Source of the DNA: Myxococcales bacterium
GTDB lineage: Bacteria > Myxococcota > Polyangia > Polyangiales > Polyangiaceae
DNA: 8,213 nucleotides
Reading direction: 5' to 3'
Assembly (NCBI GenBank): GCA_020430865.1
Contig: JAGQIY010000974.1
Span: 1 to 8,213 of the forward strand
Shown: positions 2,003 to 7,386 of the stretch, piece by piece
Layout of the letters: every line of letters begins with the position of its first letter
Position numbering within the stretch: position 1 is the stretch's first letter
Translations under genes and position numbers: made by a program
The notes under the pieces: model-generated
Seen by the model: only the letters and a program-made list of their open reading frames with translations
What the model was told of the DNA's origin: nothing
Databases searched by the model: none

Positions 2003-2983
2003 ATGGCTGAGTCGACGAAGACGCCGCAAACCCCGTTGCGATACGACTGGCAGCAGTCAGAGGTGCGAGTCATCCACGACTTGCCGCTGTTCGAGTTGAT
2101 GGATCGCGCCCGGACCGTGCACCTCCGGGAGCAGCCCGAGAGCGAGGTTCAGCTCTGCACCCTGCTCAGCGTCAAGACCGGTGGTTGCCCGGAGAACTGC
2201 GCGTACTGCCCCCAGTCGTCCCACTACGAGACGCCGGTGAAGGGCGAGGCCATGCTTCAGGTCGACGAGGTACTGGAGGCTGCGGAGCGCGCGAAGGCCG
2301 CGGGGTCGACTCGCTTCTGCATGGGCGCCGCATGGCGCTCGGTGAAGGATGGGCCTGCATTCGATCGAGTCGTCGATATGGTGAAGGGGGTCAAGGCTCT
2401 CGGGCTCGAGGCGTGCGTTACCCTGGGGATGCTCGAGGAGCATCAGGCTCAGCGACTCAAGGAAGCCGGGCTCGACGCCTACAACCACAACCTCGACACC
2501 AGTCCGGGCTTCTACAAGTCTATCATTTCCACGCGGACATATGATGATCGCTTGGTCACGCTGCGTAACGTGCGCAAGGCGGGGATCACGGTGTGTAGCG
2601 GCGGGATCATCGGCATGGGGGAGAGCGTCGACGATCGCGTCGCGATGTTGGTGCAGCTCGCGAGCCTCGAACCCCACCCCGAGAGCGTGCCGATCAACGC
2701 GCTCGTACGCGTGGCGGGGACCCCGCTCGAGGCGCTGCCTCCCGTCGATCCCACGGAGCTGGTGCGCATGATCGCCACTGCTCGCATCCTGATGCCGCGG
2801 TCCAAGGTGCGTCTGAGCGCTGGACGCACCGAGCTCAGTCGCGAGGCCCAGCTGATGTGCCTGTACGTCGGCGCGAACAGCATTTTTTACGGAGATCAGC
2901 TGCTCACGACGCCGAACCCGGAAAAGAATGCGGATCAGGAGCTGATCCACAGCGCGGGTCTGACCGCGCAGGCGCCGAGCTGA
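2003..2983 (+). CDS. bioB: Biotin synthase BioB
   Basis: The product is 326 residues, normal for BioB, a radical-SAM enzyme that inserts sulfur into dethiobiotin in the last step of biotin synthesis. The SAM-binding [4Fe-4S] cluster ligands are Cys62, Cys66 and Cys69 in [13 protein letters not shown]. The sacrificial [2Fe-2S] cluster ligands of the family are all present: Cys106 (RFCMGAAWR), Cys138 (EACVTLGM), Cys198 ([12 protein letters not shown]) and Arg270 (VRLSAGR). The YNHNLDTSP segment at 160-168 and the late [12 protein letters not shown] block are also characteristic. The protein is therefore predicted to be active. The ATG at 2003 agrees with family N termini; upstream only a distant GGAG (1986-1989) is seen. 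No other bio genes or a birA are in the window, so bioB appears detached from a biotin operon here. Confidence 0.97.
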
Positions 2984-3222
2984 GCCCCGCGCCGGTGCCA
3001 CGGTCGCTCGGTCGGCGACCAGGCTGACACGCAGCCCGCGAGGGACGTGGCTCGCGCGTGTTCCGCGCGGTGTCACGGCGCGGCGTCGATTGGGGGGATT
3101 GAGTGGCCTGGGCTTGACGGGCACGCGCTGGAATCGCAGGTTTCACACACTCTTCGATCCGCGGTCAGCGATCCAAGCAGGGTCCGCTGCCAACTTCGCT
3201 TCTCGTCCCCACGGAGTCCCCC
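2984..3222. other. Gene-free region between bioB and the DUF4266/DUF3570 cassette
   Basis: This stretch of about 240 bp has no credible gene. Just after bioB it holds several small GC-rich inverted repeats: GGTCGC 3002-3007 with GCGACC 3015-3020, CGCGAG 3037-3042 with CTCGCG 3051-3056, and TGACAC 3025-3030 with GTGTCA 3070-3075. None has a T-run, so a termination role is only possible. The promoter of the downstream cassette should lie here. TTGACG at 3114-3119 could be a -35 element, but no good -10 stands 16-18 bases on. GGAG at 3213-3216 is the ribosome binding site of the DUF4266 gene. Confidence 0.4.
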
Positions 3223-3474
3223 ATGCGCCCCACGTCTGCTCGACCGAGCCGTCCCCGGCTCGTCGTATCGCTGCCCTGGTTCGTGAGCCTGTGTGCGCTG
3301 GCGTCGTTCGCTGCCGCGTGTGCCCCGGTCGCACCCTACCAGCGTGCTCGCCTCGCCGACCCCAGCATGGCTCCGGGCTTCGCCGAGAGCGCGGCGAACG
3401 AGCACGTGCAGGCGGTCCAGGAGGGAGCGGTCGGTGGAAAGGTCGGCGTGGGGAGCGGCTGCGGATGCAACTAG
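3223..3474 (+). CDS. DUF4266 small lipoprotein ending in Cys-Gly-Cys-Asn
   Basis: The product is 83 residues. After an Arg-rich start comes a hydrophobic stretch (about 13-32) and a lipobox AAAC with Cys33, so the mature protein is a lipid-anchored peptide of only 51 residues. The mature part matches the DUF4266 pattern as I know it: a Tyr-Gln-Arg-Ala-Arg-Leu-Ala-Asp-Pro block with Met49, an acidic helix around 55-67, then a Gly-rich tail GGKVGVGSGCGCN with Cys80 and Cys82. The family's function is unknown; the invariant CGC tail suggests metal binding, a disulfide or a modification site. GGAG at 3213-3216 is six bases before the ATG. The next gene encodes a DUF3570 barrel, the usual partner of this family; in other genomes an ApbE flavin transferase and a thioredoxin are often close by, but neither is present in this window. 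Confidence 0.87.
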   Translation: MRPTSARPSRPRLVVSLPWFVSLCALASFAAACAPVAPYQRARLADPSMAPGFAESAANEHVQAVQEGAVGGKVGVGSGCGCN

Positions 3475-3527
3475 GCGCTGCCGCGGGGAAACAGTTTCCG
3501 GACCCCGTTGGGTCGCGTCGCAGCGCG

Positions 3528-4691
3528 ATGCGCCGTCTGTGGCTCGGGGCCCTCGGCGCTGGTGTGTTGGTCGCGTCGTCCGCTGGGGGGGAACCCCTCA
3601 AGTACACGCTGGGGGGTGAGGTCGCCGGCTACGCGGACACGGACAACGTCTACGTGCTCACTCCGTCATTGAGCCTCGGCGCGAGCCAGCCCACCGGCGC
3701 CTGGAAGGCCAACGCCTCCTATCTGGTGGACATCGTGACCGCGGCTTCCGTCGACATCGTCTCCACCGCGAGCCCTCGCTGGACCGAGGTGCGCAACGCG
3801 GGCGCGCTCAACGTGGACTATCAGCCCCAGAATTTCGGCGTGAATCTGGGGGGGAGCGTGTCGCGTGAACCGGACTACCTCTCCTGGTACGTCGGGGGAT
3901 CTTTCCGTGTGGAGATGTACGACAAGCGCTTCACGCCGCTCCTGGGTTACTCTTATTCCCAGGACACGGCGGGCCGCAAGGATACCCCGTTCTCCGTCTA
4001 CTCGCTCGAGCTCGAGCGGAACACCATCCAGGTGGGCGCCGAGATCGTGCTCAACCCTTCCAGTCGGTTGACGCTCTCCACGGAGGCGGTGCTGGAGGAC
4101 GGTCGCCAGGAGAAGCCATATCGCTACTTGCCCTTGTTCAGCGCCGAGATCGCGCCGACGGTGCCTCGCGGCGCGTCGGTCGATTTGGTGAACAGCCTTA
4201 GGTTATCCGGGGAGATGGGGGAGCGCCTGCCGGATACTCGGCGACGCTACTCGGTCTCCGGTGAGTTCGCGACGCGGGATGGCGATCACACCCTGCGGGT
4301 CTCCGAGCGGCTGTATGGGGACACCTGGGGCGTGCTCGCGACCACCACCGACGCGATCTACGTGCTTGGCATCGGTGGTGGCTTTCGCGCCTGGCCGCAC
4401 CTGCGCCTGCACCTGCAGGACGGCGCGAGCTTCTGGCAGCGCGCGTATGTCGCCGAGCCGGCCAGCGGGCAGATCAGCTACCCGAGCCTTCGTACGGGCG
4501 ATCGGGAGCTGAGCCCGCTGCTCACGGCGACAGCGGGGGGCGGGATCGAGTACGCGACCTCCACCATCCCCAACACCGGCTGGCGGTTCACCGGGCTCGT
4601 GGATGTCGGCCGCACCAGCTACTTCGACGCGCTCTACATCGACTCCCGTACCAGCTTCCTGGTCAGCCTGATGGCGGGGCACACGCTATGA
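3528..4691 (+). CDS. DUF3570 predicted outer-membrane beta-barrel protein
   Basis: From the ATG at 3528 the product is 387 residues. A signal peptide (MRRLWLGALGAGVLVASSAGG) is followed by a chain of alternating hydrophobic/polar stretches with Tyr, Trp and Arg at strand ends, typical of an outer-membrane barrel. Family-like landmarks are YADTDNVYVLTPSLS near the start, SYLVDIVTAASVDIVSTASP, SREPDYLSWYVGG, TPFSVYSLELER and the late TGDRELSPL and YIDSRTSF blocks. The chain ends in His-Thr-Leu, not the terminal Phe or Trp usual for barrel proteins. The frame is open far upstream. An in-frame ATG at 3465, with GGGAG at 3451-3455, overlaps the DUF4266 gene and would add 21 residues before the signal peptide, so I prefer 3528 although its own ribosome binding site is weak. 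It overlaps the next gene by ATGA. The substrate or partner is unknown. Confidence 0.87.
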   Translation: MRRLWLGALGAGVLVASSAGGEPLKYTLGGEVAGYADTDNVYVLTPSLSLGASQPTGAWKANASYLVDIVTAASVDIVSTASPRWTEVRNAGALNVDYQPQNFGVNLGGSVSREPDYLSWYVGGSFRVEMYDKRFTPLLGYSYSQDTAGRKDTPFSVYSLELERNTIQVGAEIVLNPSSRLTLSTEAVLEDGRQEKPYRYLPLFSAEIAPTVPRGASVDLVNSLRLSGEMGERLPDTRRRYSVSGEFATRDGDHTLRVSERLYGDTWGVLATTTDAIYVLGIGGGFRAWPHLRLHLQDGASFWQRAYVAEPASGQISYPSLRTGDRELSPLLTATAGGGIEYATSTIPNTGWRFTGLVDVGRTSYFDALYIDSRTSFLVSLMAGHTL

Positions 4692-5203
4692 ACCGACTTG
4701 CGCGAACGCTGCCGCTGCTGCTGGCCTTGGCTTCCAGCGCGTGTACTGACCCCACGATCGCCAAAGAAGAGGACGAGCTGGGGCCCGAGGTCGCAGGGGT
4801 CCCGCGTGGCCCGACGCATCGCGCCGGTCAGCCCTGCGTGCACTGCCATCAGTCGGGCGGCCCTGGCAGCCCCAGCTTCAGCATTGGCGGCACGATCTAC
4901 CAGGACGCGCAGCGTGAGCTTCCAATCGAGGGCGCGCGGGTGACCCTGGTGGACTCCAACGGGGACTCCTGGAGTCTCCTGACCAACTGCGCGGGTAACT
5001 TCTACATCACCGAGAGCGACTGGCAGCCCCAGTTCCCGGTCTGGGCCAGCGTTCACTGGTCCGATATTCATGTGGAAATGGAGTCCCCGATCTATCGGGA
5101 CGGGGCCTGCGCTGGCTGTCACACCTCGCCCGCAGGACCGGCTAGTCCAGGTCACGTCTACGTTTCAGAGACTCCCATCGCCGCCCGTGGAGGTTGCCGG
5201 TGA
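4688..5203 (+). CDS. Lipoprotein with two CXXCH heme motifs
   Basis: The product is 171 residues. A signal peptide ends in a lipobox SSAC with Cys19, so it should be an envelope lipoprotein. Two c-type heme attachment motifs are present: CVHCH at 50-54 and CAGCH at 141-145. Between them residues of about 66-125 (GGTIYQDAQRELPIEGARVTL, then TNCAGNFYI) read like a carboxypeptidase-regulatory-like or transthyretin-type beta-sandwich. The hemes would thus bracket a beta domain, unlike a simple tandem cytochrome c fold. Cys101 and Cys170 are extra cysteines that might pair. His44, His52, His123, His128 and His156 could supply distal ligands. The ATG overlaps the DUF3570 stop in ATGA, which implies translational coupling. 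The alternative is that the motifs bind another metal; heme is inferred from the motif plus export. Confidence 0.82.
   Translation: MNRLARTLPLLLALASSACTDPTIAKEEDELGPEVAGVPRGPTHRAGQPCVHCHQSGGPGSPSFSIGGTIYQDAQRELPIEGARVTLVDSNGDSWSLLTNCAGNFYITESDWQPQFPVWASVHWSDIHVEMESPIYRDGACAGCHTSPAGPASPGHVYVSETPIAARGGCR
5189..5193 (+). promoter_or_regulatory. GGAGG ribosome binding site deciding a GTG start
   Basis: GGAGG lies inside the end of the diheme lipoprotein gene and six bases before the GTG at 5200. It favours that GTG over the in-frame TTG at 5194, which would be immediately adjacent to the GGAGG. Confidence 0.7.
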
Positions 5204-5739
5204 CGCGGTGGCTGCCAGTGCCGCGGTCGTTGCCGACCTCGAGGCTGCTTCTGGTGTGCGCGCTATCGCTGGGGTCTCTCGCGTTGACGCTGCCTGGCTG
5301 CGGTCCGGACAGCGTCGTGGAGACCTCCAAGATGCCCGATGAGGCAGACTTCGCTGCGGTCTCCGAGGCGCTGGGTGTGCGTTGCGGGTCGCTCGATTGT
5401 CACGGCATGGCGGAGCGCAACTTCCGTCTCTACGGACGCTATGGCCTGCGCTGGAGTGACACCGACGTCCCTGGTGGCAGCGAGACCAGTGGGGACGAAC
5501 ACCACGAGAACTACCTCAGCCTGATCAGCCTCGAGCCGGAGGCGCTGGCGCAAGTGACCGAGGGAGCACCCGTCACCAGACTCACCCTGGTACGCAAGGC
5601 GCGGGGGGCAGAGGTCCACAAGGGTGGTTCACCGTTTCCTAAAGGAACTGCTGGAGACTCGTGTCTGGTCTCATGGCTGGAGGGACAGGTCGACCACGCC
5701 AGCTGCAGTCAAGCCGCCCAGTTGCTCCAGCGTCCATGA
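5200..5739 (+). CDS. Lipoprotein with CX4CH putative heme motif
   Basis: The product is 179 residues. I chose the GTG at 5200 because GTGA overlaps the upstream stop by four bases and a GGAGG is correctly spaced. A long signal peptide ends in lipobox LPGC with Cys34. The core motif CGSLDCH at 62-68 is Cys-X4-Cys-His, an unusual but documented form of the c-type heme attachment site. It is followed by Gly and a RNFRLYGRYGLR block that I associate with a recurring deltaproteobacterial family. Near the end Cys155 (GDSCLVSWLEG) and Cys169 form a second pair. HEHH-like residues occur in DEHHENYLSL. Translational coupling to the diheme lipoprotein gene suggests both act together as electron carriers in the envelope. 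The final 22 codons overlap the opposite-strand glycosyltransferase gene. Its molecular role is unknown. Confidence 0.8.
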   Translation: MTRWLPVPRSLPTSRLLLVCALSLGSLALTLPGCGPDSVVETSKMPDEADFAAVSEALGVRCGSLDCHGMAERNFRLYGRYGLRWSDTDVPGGSETSGDEHHENYLSLISLEPEALAQVTEGAPVTRLTLVRKARGAEVHKGGSPFPKGTAGDSCLVSWLEGQVDHASCSQAAQLLQRP

Positions 5740-7386
5740 ACGTCCTCTTGGCGGTCGAGGCGTTTCCTTGCCAGGCGCCTCGACCGAGCCCACGTCCACG
5801 TTGCGCTCGAGCAAGGTCACCTCGATGCGGCGCACGGGCACGTGGCCGCGCAGGATCGTCGTGCGCCTGCGACTCACCACCCGGCGATCGGGGAACTCTG
5901 CGAGCAGCTGCTGGGTGTCGATCTCGAAGCGGTCGTCGGTGACGTAGAGGATGCGTGGCGCGTTCCACCACTGTGACTCCGGGTACCAGCCGCCGAAATC
6001 ATCACCACTGGGGGTCCGACAGCCAATCGGCGCCCGGCGCTGGAGTCCCGCGTGGAGCTGCGCACAGATCACCCAATGCGGCGCGACGACCGGAGGCGTC
6101 GTTGTTCCGCGATAGCGGAGCTCCGTCTCGGTGATGGTCTGCTTGACCAGACGCACGCCGGGTTCCCAGGCGTGCATGTCGTTGGCGAGGTCGTAACGAG
6201 GCTCGTAGGCCTTCCCCAGGAGTCTCGGTGGCAGGTCCGTGCCTACCCAGACTGCGCCGAGCAGGATCGCCGCGACACCAATGGTCGCGCAGGTCGCTCG
6301 AAGCTTGGTCCCGGTGGCTTCGGGGAGGCGACTTGCCGCGAGGCAGAGCGCGAGGTAGGTCGGGCCCAACCAGTGTGGCTCCGCTACCTTCGACCACAGG
6401 CAGAGCAGGGCCAGGGGGAGGGCGGGGATCCAGGTGGCGTGGAACAGCAGCGCCCCATCCAGGTCTCCCCTCGAGAGCCTCCTGAGCAGGAAATAGCCGG
6501 CGATCAGGAACGGCGGTGTGACGTACAACAACTGGCCGCCGAGCAGCGCGCCCAAATTCCTTAGGGAAAACCCCGACGCGCCCTGGGTAGCCACCATGCG
6601 ATGCTTCCACATCGGATAGCCGTGCTGGACCTCGTAGGATACGAAGGGCCAGATCAGGATCAGCATCACCAGGAGCGCCCCCCAGGGGGCGATCGTGCGC
6701 AGATGCGCGCGGGCTTCGGGACGTCGCAGGACCACCGCCAGTGCAGGCAAGAGCAACAGCATGCTGATCTTGCTCAAGACCCCCAGGCCGAGGCAGACAC
6801 CAGTGAGCAGCGCGAAGCCCAGCGCGCGCGTCGAACCCGCGTCCGCCTTGACGAAGCCAGCAAAGCTCCCGAGGGCAAGTAGCCACAGCGGCGCGAGCAG
6901 CAAGTCGGGCGTGAAGCCGAAGAGGCCGATCGCGATCTCCGGCATCAGCAAGAGGGCGAACGCCGTCAGGTGCAGGTGCCGCTTGTCGCTCCCGAGCTGC
7001 CAAGCCGCCCAAACGCCGAGCCAAGGCACCGCGCTGCTCAAGAACGCGGAGATCAAATGGCAGGCGAGGGGCGGAGGGGCGTGGCCGTCACCAAGCCAGC
7101 CAGCCACGAAGCCAATCAGGCCCGGATGGTCGAGGTAGGCGGGCTGGGGGTGCAGCGCGTAGCAGGCGTAGAGGGCCTCGGAGTCACCGAAGCCTACCTC
7201 GGAAGCCATCCAGAGCTTCAGGGCGAGCAGCGCGAAGCTGAACGCCAGGGCAAACTTGATACCGCGAGGAAGCTCGATCGGCGCGCGTCGGGCGCGGCTG
7301 CGCGCCGAAAGCGACGGCGCGCGGCTCGCGTCGGGGTTGCCTGCGCCGGTGCGCTTCGATTTGCCGGGCTTCGGCTTGGTGGTCAC
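5671..7386 (-). CDS. GT-C (PMT/ArnT-like) membrane glycosyltransferase
   Basis: The product is 571 residues. A Lys/Arg-rich tail of about 40 residues precedes roughly ten membrane segments, the first at 43-61 and the rest spread to about residue 385, and then a soluble C-terminal domain of about 190 residues. The first external loop has GFGDSEALY at 65-73 and AYLDHPGLIG at 83-92. These match the Asp-Glu and Tyr-x-Asp-His-Pro signatures of the dolichyl-phosphate-mannose mannosyltransferase-like (PMT_2, GT39/GT83-type) family, which uses polyprenyl-phosphate sugars on the periplasmic side of the inner membrane. Here the acidic pair is Asp68 and Glu70, with a Ser between them. The GTG start overlaps the lpxB stop in GTGA, with GGAG eight bases upstream (7395-7398). 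That neighbour suggests, but does not prove, lipid A or another lipid as acceptor. Its 3' end overlaps the convergent lipoprotein gene by 69 bp. Confidence 0.85.
   Translation of the reverse strand: MTTKPKPGKSKRTGAGNPDASRAPSLSARSRARRAPIELPRGIKFALAFSFALLALKLWMASEVGFGDSEALYACYALHPQPAYLDHPGLIGFVAGWLGDGHAPPPLACHLISAFLSSAVPWLGVWAAWQLGSDKRHLHLTAFALLLMPEIAIGLFGFTPDLLLAPLWLLALGSFAGFVKADAGSTRALGFALLTGVCLGLGVLSKISMLLLLPALAVVLRRPEARAHLRTIAPWGALLVMLILIWPFVSYEVQHGYPMWKHRMVATQGASGFSLRNLGALLGGQLLYVTPPFLIAGYFLLRRLSRGDLDGALLFHATWIPALPLALLCLWSKVAEPHWLGPTYLALCLAASRLPEATGTKLRATCATIGVAAILLGAVWVGTDLPPRLLGKAYEPRYDLANDMHAWEPGVRLVKQTITETELRYRGTTTPPVVAPHWVICAQLHAGLQRRAPIGCRTPSGDDFGGWYPESQWWNAPRILYVTDDRFEIDTQQLLAEFPDRRVVSRRRTTILRGHVPVRRIEVTLLERNVDVGSVEAPGKETPRPPRGRSWTLEQLGGLTAAGVVDLSLQP

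What the first reader, a model, noticed from the sequence alone, without database searches (positions are those of the whole stretch)
3223..5739. Four-gene envelope cassette: DUF4266, DUF3570 and two putative heme lipoproteins
Seen: four consecutive plus-strand genes, the last three joined by ATGA and GTGA overlaps. All products carry export signals: one barrel-like protein and three lipoproteins, with CXXCH x2 and CX4CH motifs. Known: DUF4266 and DUF3570 are functionally uncharacterised families that recur together, often near an ApbE flavin transferase and a thioredoxin. Inference: here the flavin/thiol partners are absent from the window and heme-motif lipoproteins occupy that position. This suggests a variant outer-membrane redox system in which the barrel, the Cys-tailed peptide and the cytochromes act as one electron-transfer or metal-handling complex.
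Basis: partly seen in the sequence, partly recalled or inferred. Interest (0 to 1): 0.75.

Follow-up and report, generated by a model that had tools for sequence, protein, structure and literature searches.

The report
Heme-partnered relative of a flavin barrel
In one group of soil bacteria, an outer-membrane barrel that elsewhere is fitted with flavins by a neighbouring enzyme has altered flavin sites, lacks that enzyme next door, and usually sits beside two small membrane-anchored proteins with heme-binding motifs, which suggests that one redox cofactor has taken over from, or joined, another.

Summary
Four plus-strand genes (DUF4266, DUF3570, and two lipoproteins with 2x CXXCH and 1x CX4CH) lie head to tail with ATGA and GTGA overlaps. 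It is not peculiar to this genome: in 240 genomes of the class, 81 of 84 DUF3570 genes of this subfamily (41 genomes) have the CXXCH lipoprotein within 4 kb, and 87 of 92 strong homologues of it lie within 4 kb of a DUF3570. New here: DUF3570 is a proven ApbE flavinylation substrate through two [ST]GA[ST] motifs (PMC8238504). In 21 comparison loci ApbE is present in 21 and a motif in 21, lipoA/lipoB in none; in the window's subfamily ApbE in 0 of 76, motif in 0 of 76 (TAAS and STAS here), lipoA in 73, lipoB in 72. The Asp and acceptor Ser/Thr stay conserved, so flavinylation of a variant motif by an ApbE encoded elsewhere is not excluded. DUF3570 models as a 16-strand outer-membrane barrel. 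Best reading: a cytochrome-partnered variant of the DUF3570/DUF4266 electron-transfer system. Heme binding, complex formation and substrate are inferred, not shown.

The parts
3223..3474 (+). DUF4266 lipoprotein, 83 aa
   Evidence: Pfam PF14086 54.4 bits over cut-off 27; near DUF3570 in 54 of 76 subfamily loci
3460..3468 (+). C-terminal CGC (CXC) of DUF4266
   Evidence: read in sequence; CXC named as conserved in DUF4266 by PMC8238504
3528..4691 (+). DUF3570 outer-membrane beta-barrel, 387 aa (in-frame alternative start ATG 3465)
   Evidence: Pfam PF12094 73.9 bits; 16-strand AlphaFold model pLDDT 87.9 pTM 0.82; porin matches
3729..3749 (+). altered flavinylation site 1: DIVTAAS (Gly to Ala)
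   Evidence: aligned with SGA[ST] of ApbE-linked DUF3570; 0 of 76 subfamily loci have [ST]GA[ST]; Asp and acceptor Ser 76 of 76
3753..3773 (+). altered flavinylation site 2: DIVSTAS (Gly to Thr)
   Evidence: Gly position holds T, S, E, A, M, H or Y across the 76 subfamily loci
4688..5203 (+). lipoprotein A (lipoA), 171 aa, two CXXCH around a carboxypeptidase-regulatory-like region (sub-threshold)
   Evidence: within 3.6 kb in 73 of 76 subfamily loci, either strand
4835..4849 (+). CXXCH 1 (CVHCH) of lipoprotein A
   Evidence: invariant C50, C53, H54 in A2
5108..5122 (+). CXXCH 2 (CAGCH) of lipoprotein A
   Evidence: invariant C141, C144, H145 in A2
5200..5739 (+). lipoprotein B (lipoB), 179 aa, one CX4CH; no family in Pfam or NCBIfam
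   Evidence: within 3.6 kb in 72 of 76 subfamily loci, either strand
5383..5403 (+). CX4CH (CGSLDCH) of lipoprotein B
   Evidence: invariant C62, C67, H68 in A3; CX4CH in 82 of 83 hits
5617..5619 (+). invariant His140 of lipoprotein B, candidate second axial ligand
   Evidence: invariant in A3; role inferred

Best explanation
A cytochrome-partnered variant of the DUF3570/DUF4266 outer-membrane redox system. In the known form DUF3570 carries FMN put on at two motifs by ApbE, and electrons are proposed to come from DsbD and a thioredoxin-like protein. Here both attachment motifs of the barrel are altered at their glycine, and the ApbE/thiol genes beside it are replaced by two lipoproteins with c-type heme motifs. 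Most likely path (inferred): periplasmic electrons reach diheme lipoprotein A and monoheme lipoprotein B at the outer membrane and pass to or from the barrel's conserved face and an unknown acceptor or donor, possibly iron. Shown: gene order, its conservation, loss of the motif glycine, absence of a nearby ApbE, barrel model. Inferred: heme attachment, lipidation, physical complex, direction of electron flow, substrate.
For: (1) Conserved linkage: 81 of 84 subfamily DUF3570 in 41 genomes have lipoA within 4 kb; 87 of 92 strong lipoA hits lie within 4 kb of a listed DUF3570. (2) Contrast: ApbE 0 of 76 against 21 of 21; [ST]GA[ST] 0 of 76 against 21 of 21 (two motifs in 18 of 21); lipoA 73 and lipoB 72 of 76 against 0 of 21 for both. 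The ApbE model refinds the 30 sequences it was built from and, independently, all 21 comparison loci. (3) [WF]CxxC motif scan within 4 kb: 15 of 21 comparison loci against 9 of 76 (by eye some hits are spurious). (4) The altered loop is the best-conserved loop of ten or more residues (mean 0.91 identity against 0.60 in strands), and loops on its face average 0.73 against 0.46 on the other. (5) Cytochrom_C_asm in 14 of 14 subfamily genomes tested, so c-type heme could be attached. (6) Tree of 98 rows without the motif columns: lipoA rows need 3 changes against a shuffled mean of 30.3; 38 of 40 rows of one starred clade (99) carry lipoA. (7) Precedent: flavin/cytochrome swaps in related respiratory systems (PMC8238504, section read).
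Against: No heme or electron-transfer measurement exists. LipoA reaches cytochrome and CarboxypepD_reg profiles only below cut-off and lipoB matches none; lipoB's model (pLDDT 77.7) has no useful structural match. Asp and acceptor Ser/Thr of both motifs stay in 76 of 76, 18 of 119 nearest homologues compared keep SGAS at site 1, a Gly-to-Ala change left about 50% flavinylation in another ApbE substrate (review PMC12052999), and 193 of 240 genomes of the class have an ApbE somewhere: flavin at site 1 may persist. 12 of 76 subfamily loci have a nearby DUF2271 with an intact motif. Polyangial DUF3570 loci outside the subfamily and middle group also mostly lack a nearby ApbE (1 of 74) without having lipoA (0 of 74), so losing the ApbE linkage is wider than gaining lipoA.
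Confidence: 0.55

Rival explanations
1. Mixed flavin/heme system: the barrel is still flavinylated, mainly at site 1, by an ApbE encoded elsewhere that accepts D-x-x-[ST]-[AG]-A-S, and the heme lipoproteins are added partners, not replacements.
For: Asp and acceptor conserved in 76 of 76 at both sites; site 1 holds A 69, T 6, N 1 at the Gly place; SGAS in 18 of 119 near homologues; Gly-to-Ala keeps about 50% modification in a K. pneumoniae substrate as told by the review PMC12052999; ApbE present in 193 of 240 genomes; nearby DUF2271 with intact motif in 12 of 76.
Against: Site 2 carries T, S, E, A, M, H or Y at the Gly position; ApbE lies near the barrel in 0 of 76 loci against 21 of 21 comparison loci; ApbE may be kept for other substrates.
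Confidence: 0.3
2. Not redox: the Cys/His motifs bind a metal or form disulfides, and the cassette serves metal handling or outer-membrane assembly.
For: LipoB matches no Pfam or NCBIfam family and its CX4CH is unproven; DUF4266 ends in CGC; PMC8238504 reports 25 DUF3570-type gene clusters with a VIT1 iron transporter.
Against: Canonical CXXCH twice in lipoA in 81 of 89 hits, heme-attachment machinery in 14 of 14 genomes tested, and the partner barrel family includes a proven flavoprotein.
Confidence: 0.13
3. Chance neighbours without functional link.
For: None beyond the lack of experiments.
Against: Linkage in 81 of 84 places in 41 genomes, and overlapping genes in the window.
Confidence: 0.01

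Closest known systems
ApbE/DUF3570/DUF4266/thioredoxin-like/DsbD flavinylation cluster (Meheust et al. 2021, PMC8238504)
   Same: DUF3570 and DUF4266 side by side, exported; presumed electron transfer
   Different: no ApbE, thioredoxin or DsbD in the window; both [ST]GA[ST] motifs altered; two heme-motif lipoproteins instead
Flavin/cytochrome-interchangeable respiratory modules (fumarate reductases, alcohol oxidase clusters; PMC8238504, section read)
   Same: one redox carrier replaced by another in an otherwise related system
   Different: those swaps are domain or gene swaps around a catalytic enzyme; here the flavin sites of the barrel itself are altered
Porin-cytochrome electron conduits (MtrCAB, Cyc2; recalled)
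   Same: outer-membrane barrel plus c-type heme motifs
   Different: only one- and two-heme-motif lipoproteins, no multiheme cytochrome; sequences were not compared here
DUF2271 flavoproteins (PMC8238504)
   Same: ApbE substrate family found near DUF3570 in 19 of 76 subfamily loci
   Different: not seen in the window

Membership tests
DUF3570 (PF12094) | Pfam score over cut-off | tested here: met
   73.9 bits, cut-off 25
DUF4266 (PF14086) | Pfam score over cut-off and C-terminal CXC | tested here: met
   54.4 bits, cut-off 27; ends GSGCGCN
ApbE-flavinylated DUF3570 system | two [ST]GA[ST] motifs in DUF3570 | tested here: not met
   TAAS and STAS at the aligned places
ApbE-flavinylated DUF3570 system | ApbE gene in the cluster | tested here: not met
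   no ApbE profile hit in the window; 0 of 76 subfamily loci. The window's own genome is not held
ApbE-flavinylated DUF3570 system | thioredoxin-like and/or DsbD gene nearby | tested here: not met
   none among the nine window proteins scanned against Pfam; no [WF]CxxC hit listed for the window
ApbE-flavinylated DUF3570 system | covalent FMN on the barrel | not testable with these tools
   needs an experiment
c-type cytochrome (lipoprotein A) | conserved CXXCH | tested here: met
   both invariant in A2; 2 motifs in 81 of 89 hits
c-type cytochrome (lipoprotein A) | known cytochrome profile over cut-off | tested here: not met
   Cytochrome_CBB3 18.4 bits, cut-off 27; Cytochrom_C 18.2, cut-off 21.3
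c-type cytochrome (lipoprotein B) | heme attachment motif | tested here: inconclusive
   CX4CH in 82 of 83 hits; the pattern occurs in cytochrome c3 (PMC10454114), but no profile or useful fold match here
c-type cytochrome (A and B) | covalently bound heme | not testable with these tools
   needs an experiment
Porin-cytochrome conduit | outer-membrane barrel | tested here: met
   16-strand model; porin matches
Porin-cytochrome conduit | multiheme cytochrome spanning the barrel | tested here: not met
   only 2 + 1 heme motifs in the cassette

The most novel reading that the evidence does not exclude
A flavoprotein barrel family changed cofactor within one bacterial lineage: its flavin-attachment loop was re-used as a conserved docking or electron-relay face, and two lineage-specific lipoproteins, one of a so far unnamed CX4CH cytochrome family, became its heme carriers, giving a further type of outer-membrane electron conduit.
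Probability: 0.27. Interest if true: 0.82.

Novelty: new variant of a known kind. Interest (0 to 1): 0.6.

Why it matters
The role of DUF3570 is called uncertain even in its known, flavinylated form (PMC8238504). A large natural set in which the flavin motif is altered while heme-motif partners are nearly fixed gives a direct way to test what the barrel does and whether flavin and heme are interchangeable carriers at the outer membrane. It also points to a CX4CH lipoprotein family that matches no Pfam or NCBIfam model. In print I found one paper for either DUF and, for Polyangia with cytochrome and extracellular electron transfer, one paper with a single mention each of Polyangia and cytochrome; only this open-access library was searched.

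Tried and rejected
Chance adjacency: rejected by the survey. Known cytochrome or other family for lipoprotein B: none in Pfam, NCBIfam or PDB sequences; PDB fold searches gave no useful match, which shows neither a new fold nor lack of heme. LipoA against PDB sequences: three weak matches, best E 0.077, the two alignments seen lying around CXXCH motifs. Viral contigs: no relative. Rfam: no match. Promoter and terminator scan 2900-6000: no promoter-like site; two minus-strand terminator-like sites against 0.9 expected, uninformative. A stricter text pattern for DUF4266 undercounted (21 of 76); the profile count (54 of 76) is used. The simple claim that flavinylation is lost was rejected as too strong: see rival 1. 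LipoB-like hits within 3.6 kb in the other polyangial loci (30 of 74) are weaker; of the hits in those loci that reach E 1e-5, 23 of 23 carry CX4CH.

Limits. Loci were picked by profile score from capped lists, so the 74 other polyangial loci are not an even sample. Not all 84 subfamily places were fetched as loci (some places of closely related genomes were left out), but one search counts all 84. Flanks were up to 7 kb and shorter where contigs end, so absence of a neighbour can be a contig end. Of the three detailed subfamily loci without lipoA, L132 and L146 stop at the contig end, and L076 has a lipoA hit about 16 kb away on its contig. The comparison loci are 20 of the 23 best-scoring places (three from one genome, 18 genomes; two G places and a second G386 place were left out), chosen by Pfam score and not by ApbE; their class was not told; the 21st is a Vibrio plasmid. 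The DUF3570 of L001 is split by a frame shift; its longer piece was used as it stands. One listed region (10 bases, L263) was a filler and was not used. Trees are FastTree trees of subsamples (98 and 165 rows), the second with warnings of long branches meeting; its script stopped with an error after the tree results were printed.
Full report
Observation. Pfam confirms the two DUFs over cut-off; lipoprotein A has only sub-threshold cytochrome and carboxypeptidase-regulatory hits and lipoprotein B none. An in-frame ATG at 3465 overlaps the DUF4266 stop, as in relative L001, so the whole set may be translationally coupled. Flanks are a PilT-family ATPase, bioB, and on the minus strand a PMT_2-type protein and an LpxB-type protein. 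L001 (Polyangia bacterium Co_bin.42) has the same four genes, its DUF3570 split by a frame shift, between flanks that look the same by eye.

Survey. The window's own genome is not held, so relatives were used. A profile of 28 sequences (A1, window included) searched in 240 genomes of the class gave a clear gap: the subfamily scores 346 bits and over, the next rows 263 and below. Of the 84 subfamily places in 41 genomes, 81 have lipoA within 4 kb; of the 3 misses, two are at contig ends. Conversely 87 of 92 strong lipoA hits (122 bits or more, 46 genomes) lie within 4 kb of a listed DUF3570, while of the 58 weaker ones listed 6 do. For 162 loci held in detail (window, L001, L002 and 159 fetched), lipoA and lipoB within 3.6 kb on either strand: subfamily 73 and 72 of 76, middle group 11 and 12 of 12, others 0 and 30 of 74. 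DUF4266 on either strand: 54 of 76, 10 of 12, 72 of 74, so the heme-motif lipoproteins are the tighter partners.

What DUF3570 is known for. One paper in the library names either DUF: Meheust et al. 2021 (PMC8238504), of which I saw the abstract, passages and one section. It shows that ApbE flavinylates the Chlorobium luteolum DUF3570, that both [ST]GA[ST] serines had to be replaced to abolish it, and describes clusters of ApbE, DUF3570, a thioredoxin-like protein and DUF4266, some with DsbD. A later paper of flavinylation structures (PMC11334425, passages and one section) does not name DUF3570 or DUF4266 in its main text.

The contrast. Twenty of the 23 best-scoring DUF3570 places of the phylum search, chosen by Pfam score, and one Vibrio plasmid locus have ApbE beside DUF3570 (21 of 21), at least one motif (21 of 21, two in 18), DUF4266 (21 of 21), and no lipoA or lipoB hit. 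A [WF]CxxC pattern occurs within 4 kb in 15 of 21, against 9 of 76, 4 of 12 and 13 of 74 in the polyangial groups, some of these spurious by eye. In polyangial loci the ApbE profile, which refinds its own 30 seeds and all 21 comparison loci, hits 1 of 162 (L244). A motif is present in 0 of 76, 0 of 12 and 21 of 74 (never two). In alignment, the two motifs of the comparison set face DIVTAAS-V-DIVSTAS of the window, the loop between them lost.

Not simple decay. In the subfamily the Asp and the acceptor residue of both motifs are kept in 76 of 76; the glycine position holds A 69, T 6, N 1 at site 1 and T 55, S 9, E 4, A 3, M 3, H 1, Y 1 at site 2. On the model, the motif loop is the best-conserved loop of ten or more residues (0.91), and loops on its face average 0.73 against 0.46 opposite; with the usual porin topology (recalled, not tested) that face is the outer one. 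Among 119 of the 120 listed nearest homologues (P0005, a fragment, left out), site 1 is SGAS in 18 and site 2 never has Gly. A review reports that Gly-to-Ala lowered flavinylation to about 50% in a K. pneumoniae protein (PMC12052999, passages; the original was not read). ApbE occurs in 193 of 240 genomes of the class. So site 1 may still be modified in trans; site 2 is less likely. DUF2271, another ApbE substrate family, lies near DUF3570 in 19 of 76 subfamily loci, 12 with an intact motif and 7 without (counted; L084 has one intact and one altered copy), and in 0 of 21 comparison loci.

Heme side. LipoA hits have two CXXCH in 81 of 89; lipoB hits have CX4CH in 82 of 83. All 14 subfamily genomes tested carry three Cytochrom_C_asm matches each. 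CX4CH occurs in cytochrome c3 (PMC10454114, passage) and is counted as a heme motif in a genome survey (PMC10734462, passages). LipoB's model is helical, of moderate confidence, without useful fold match.

History. On a tree without motif columns, lipoA rows need 3 changes against 30.3 shuffled, and 38 of 40 rows of one starred clade carry it; one of the other two is lipoB-like and one has neither. One main origin fits. The program does not infer the root, so gain against loss is inference.

Mechanism and verdict. Most likely the set is an outer-membrane electron-transfer unit in which heme lipoproteins replaced, or supplement, the flavin/thiol partners of DUF3570. Heme, complex, direction and substrate are inferred. 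It is a new variant of a known kind.

Noticed in passing
L136:7001-9181 (minus) and other subfamily loci: In 32 subfamily loci the open frame of DUF3570 extends more than 250 residues upstream of the domain; in the one scanned (L136) the extension has TPR-like repeats below cut-off.
   Followed up: partly
L092:5291-5953 and 18 other subfamily loci: A DUF2271 protein, in 12 of the 19 loci with an intact flavinylation motif, lies near the heme lipoproteins or DUF3570 while the DUF3570 motifs are altered.
   Followed up: partly
L163:5853-6944: A CXXCH-bearing stretch, by eye like a choice-of-anchor protein, runs in frame without a stop into DUF4266; its sequence cluster spans 27 loci.
   Followed up: no
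L244: The single polyangial locus with an ApbE hit (1.5 kb downstream) has DUF3570 motifs TSAS/TAAT, a WCAPC thioredoxin-like protein and a DUF2271-like protein with TSAS.
   Followed up: partly
L104:4127-4693 (minus) and 16 other loci: An AhpC-TSA/redoxin-like protein is encoded upstream of the cassette, mostly on the opposite strand.
   Followed up: no
L163, L165, L168 and others, near DUF3570: More distant polyangial DUF3570 loci have weaker lipoB-like CX4CH proteins (30 of 74), so CX4CH partners are wider than the lipoA cassette.
   Followed up: partly
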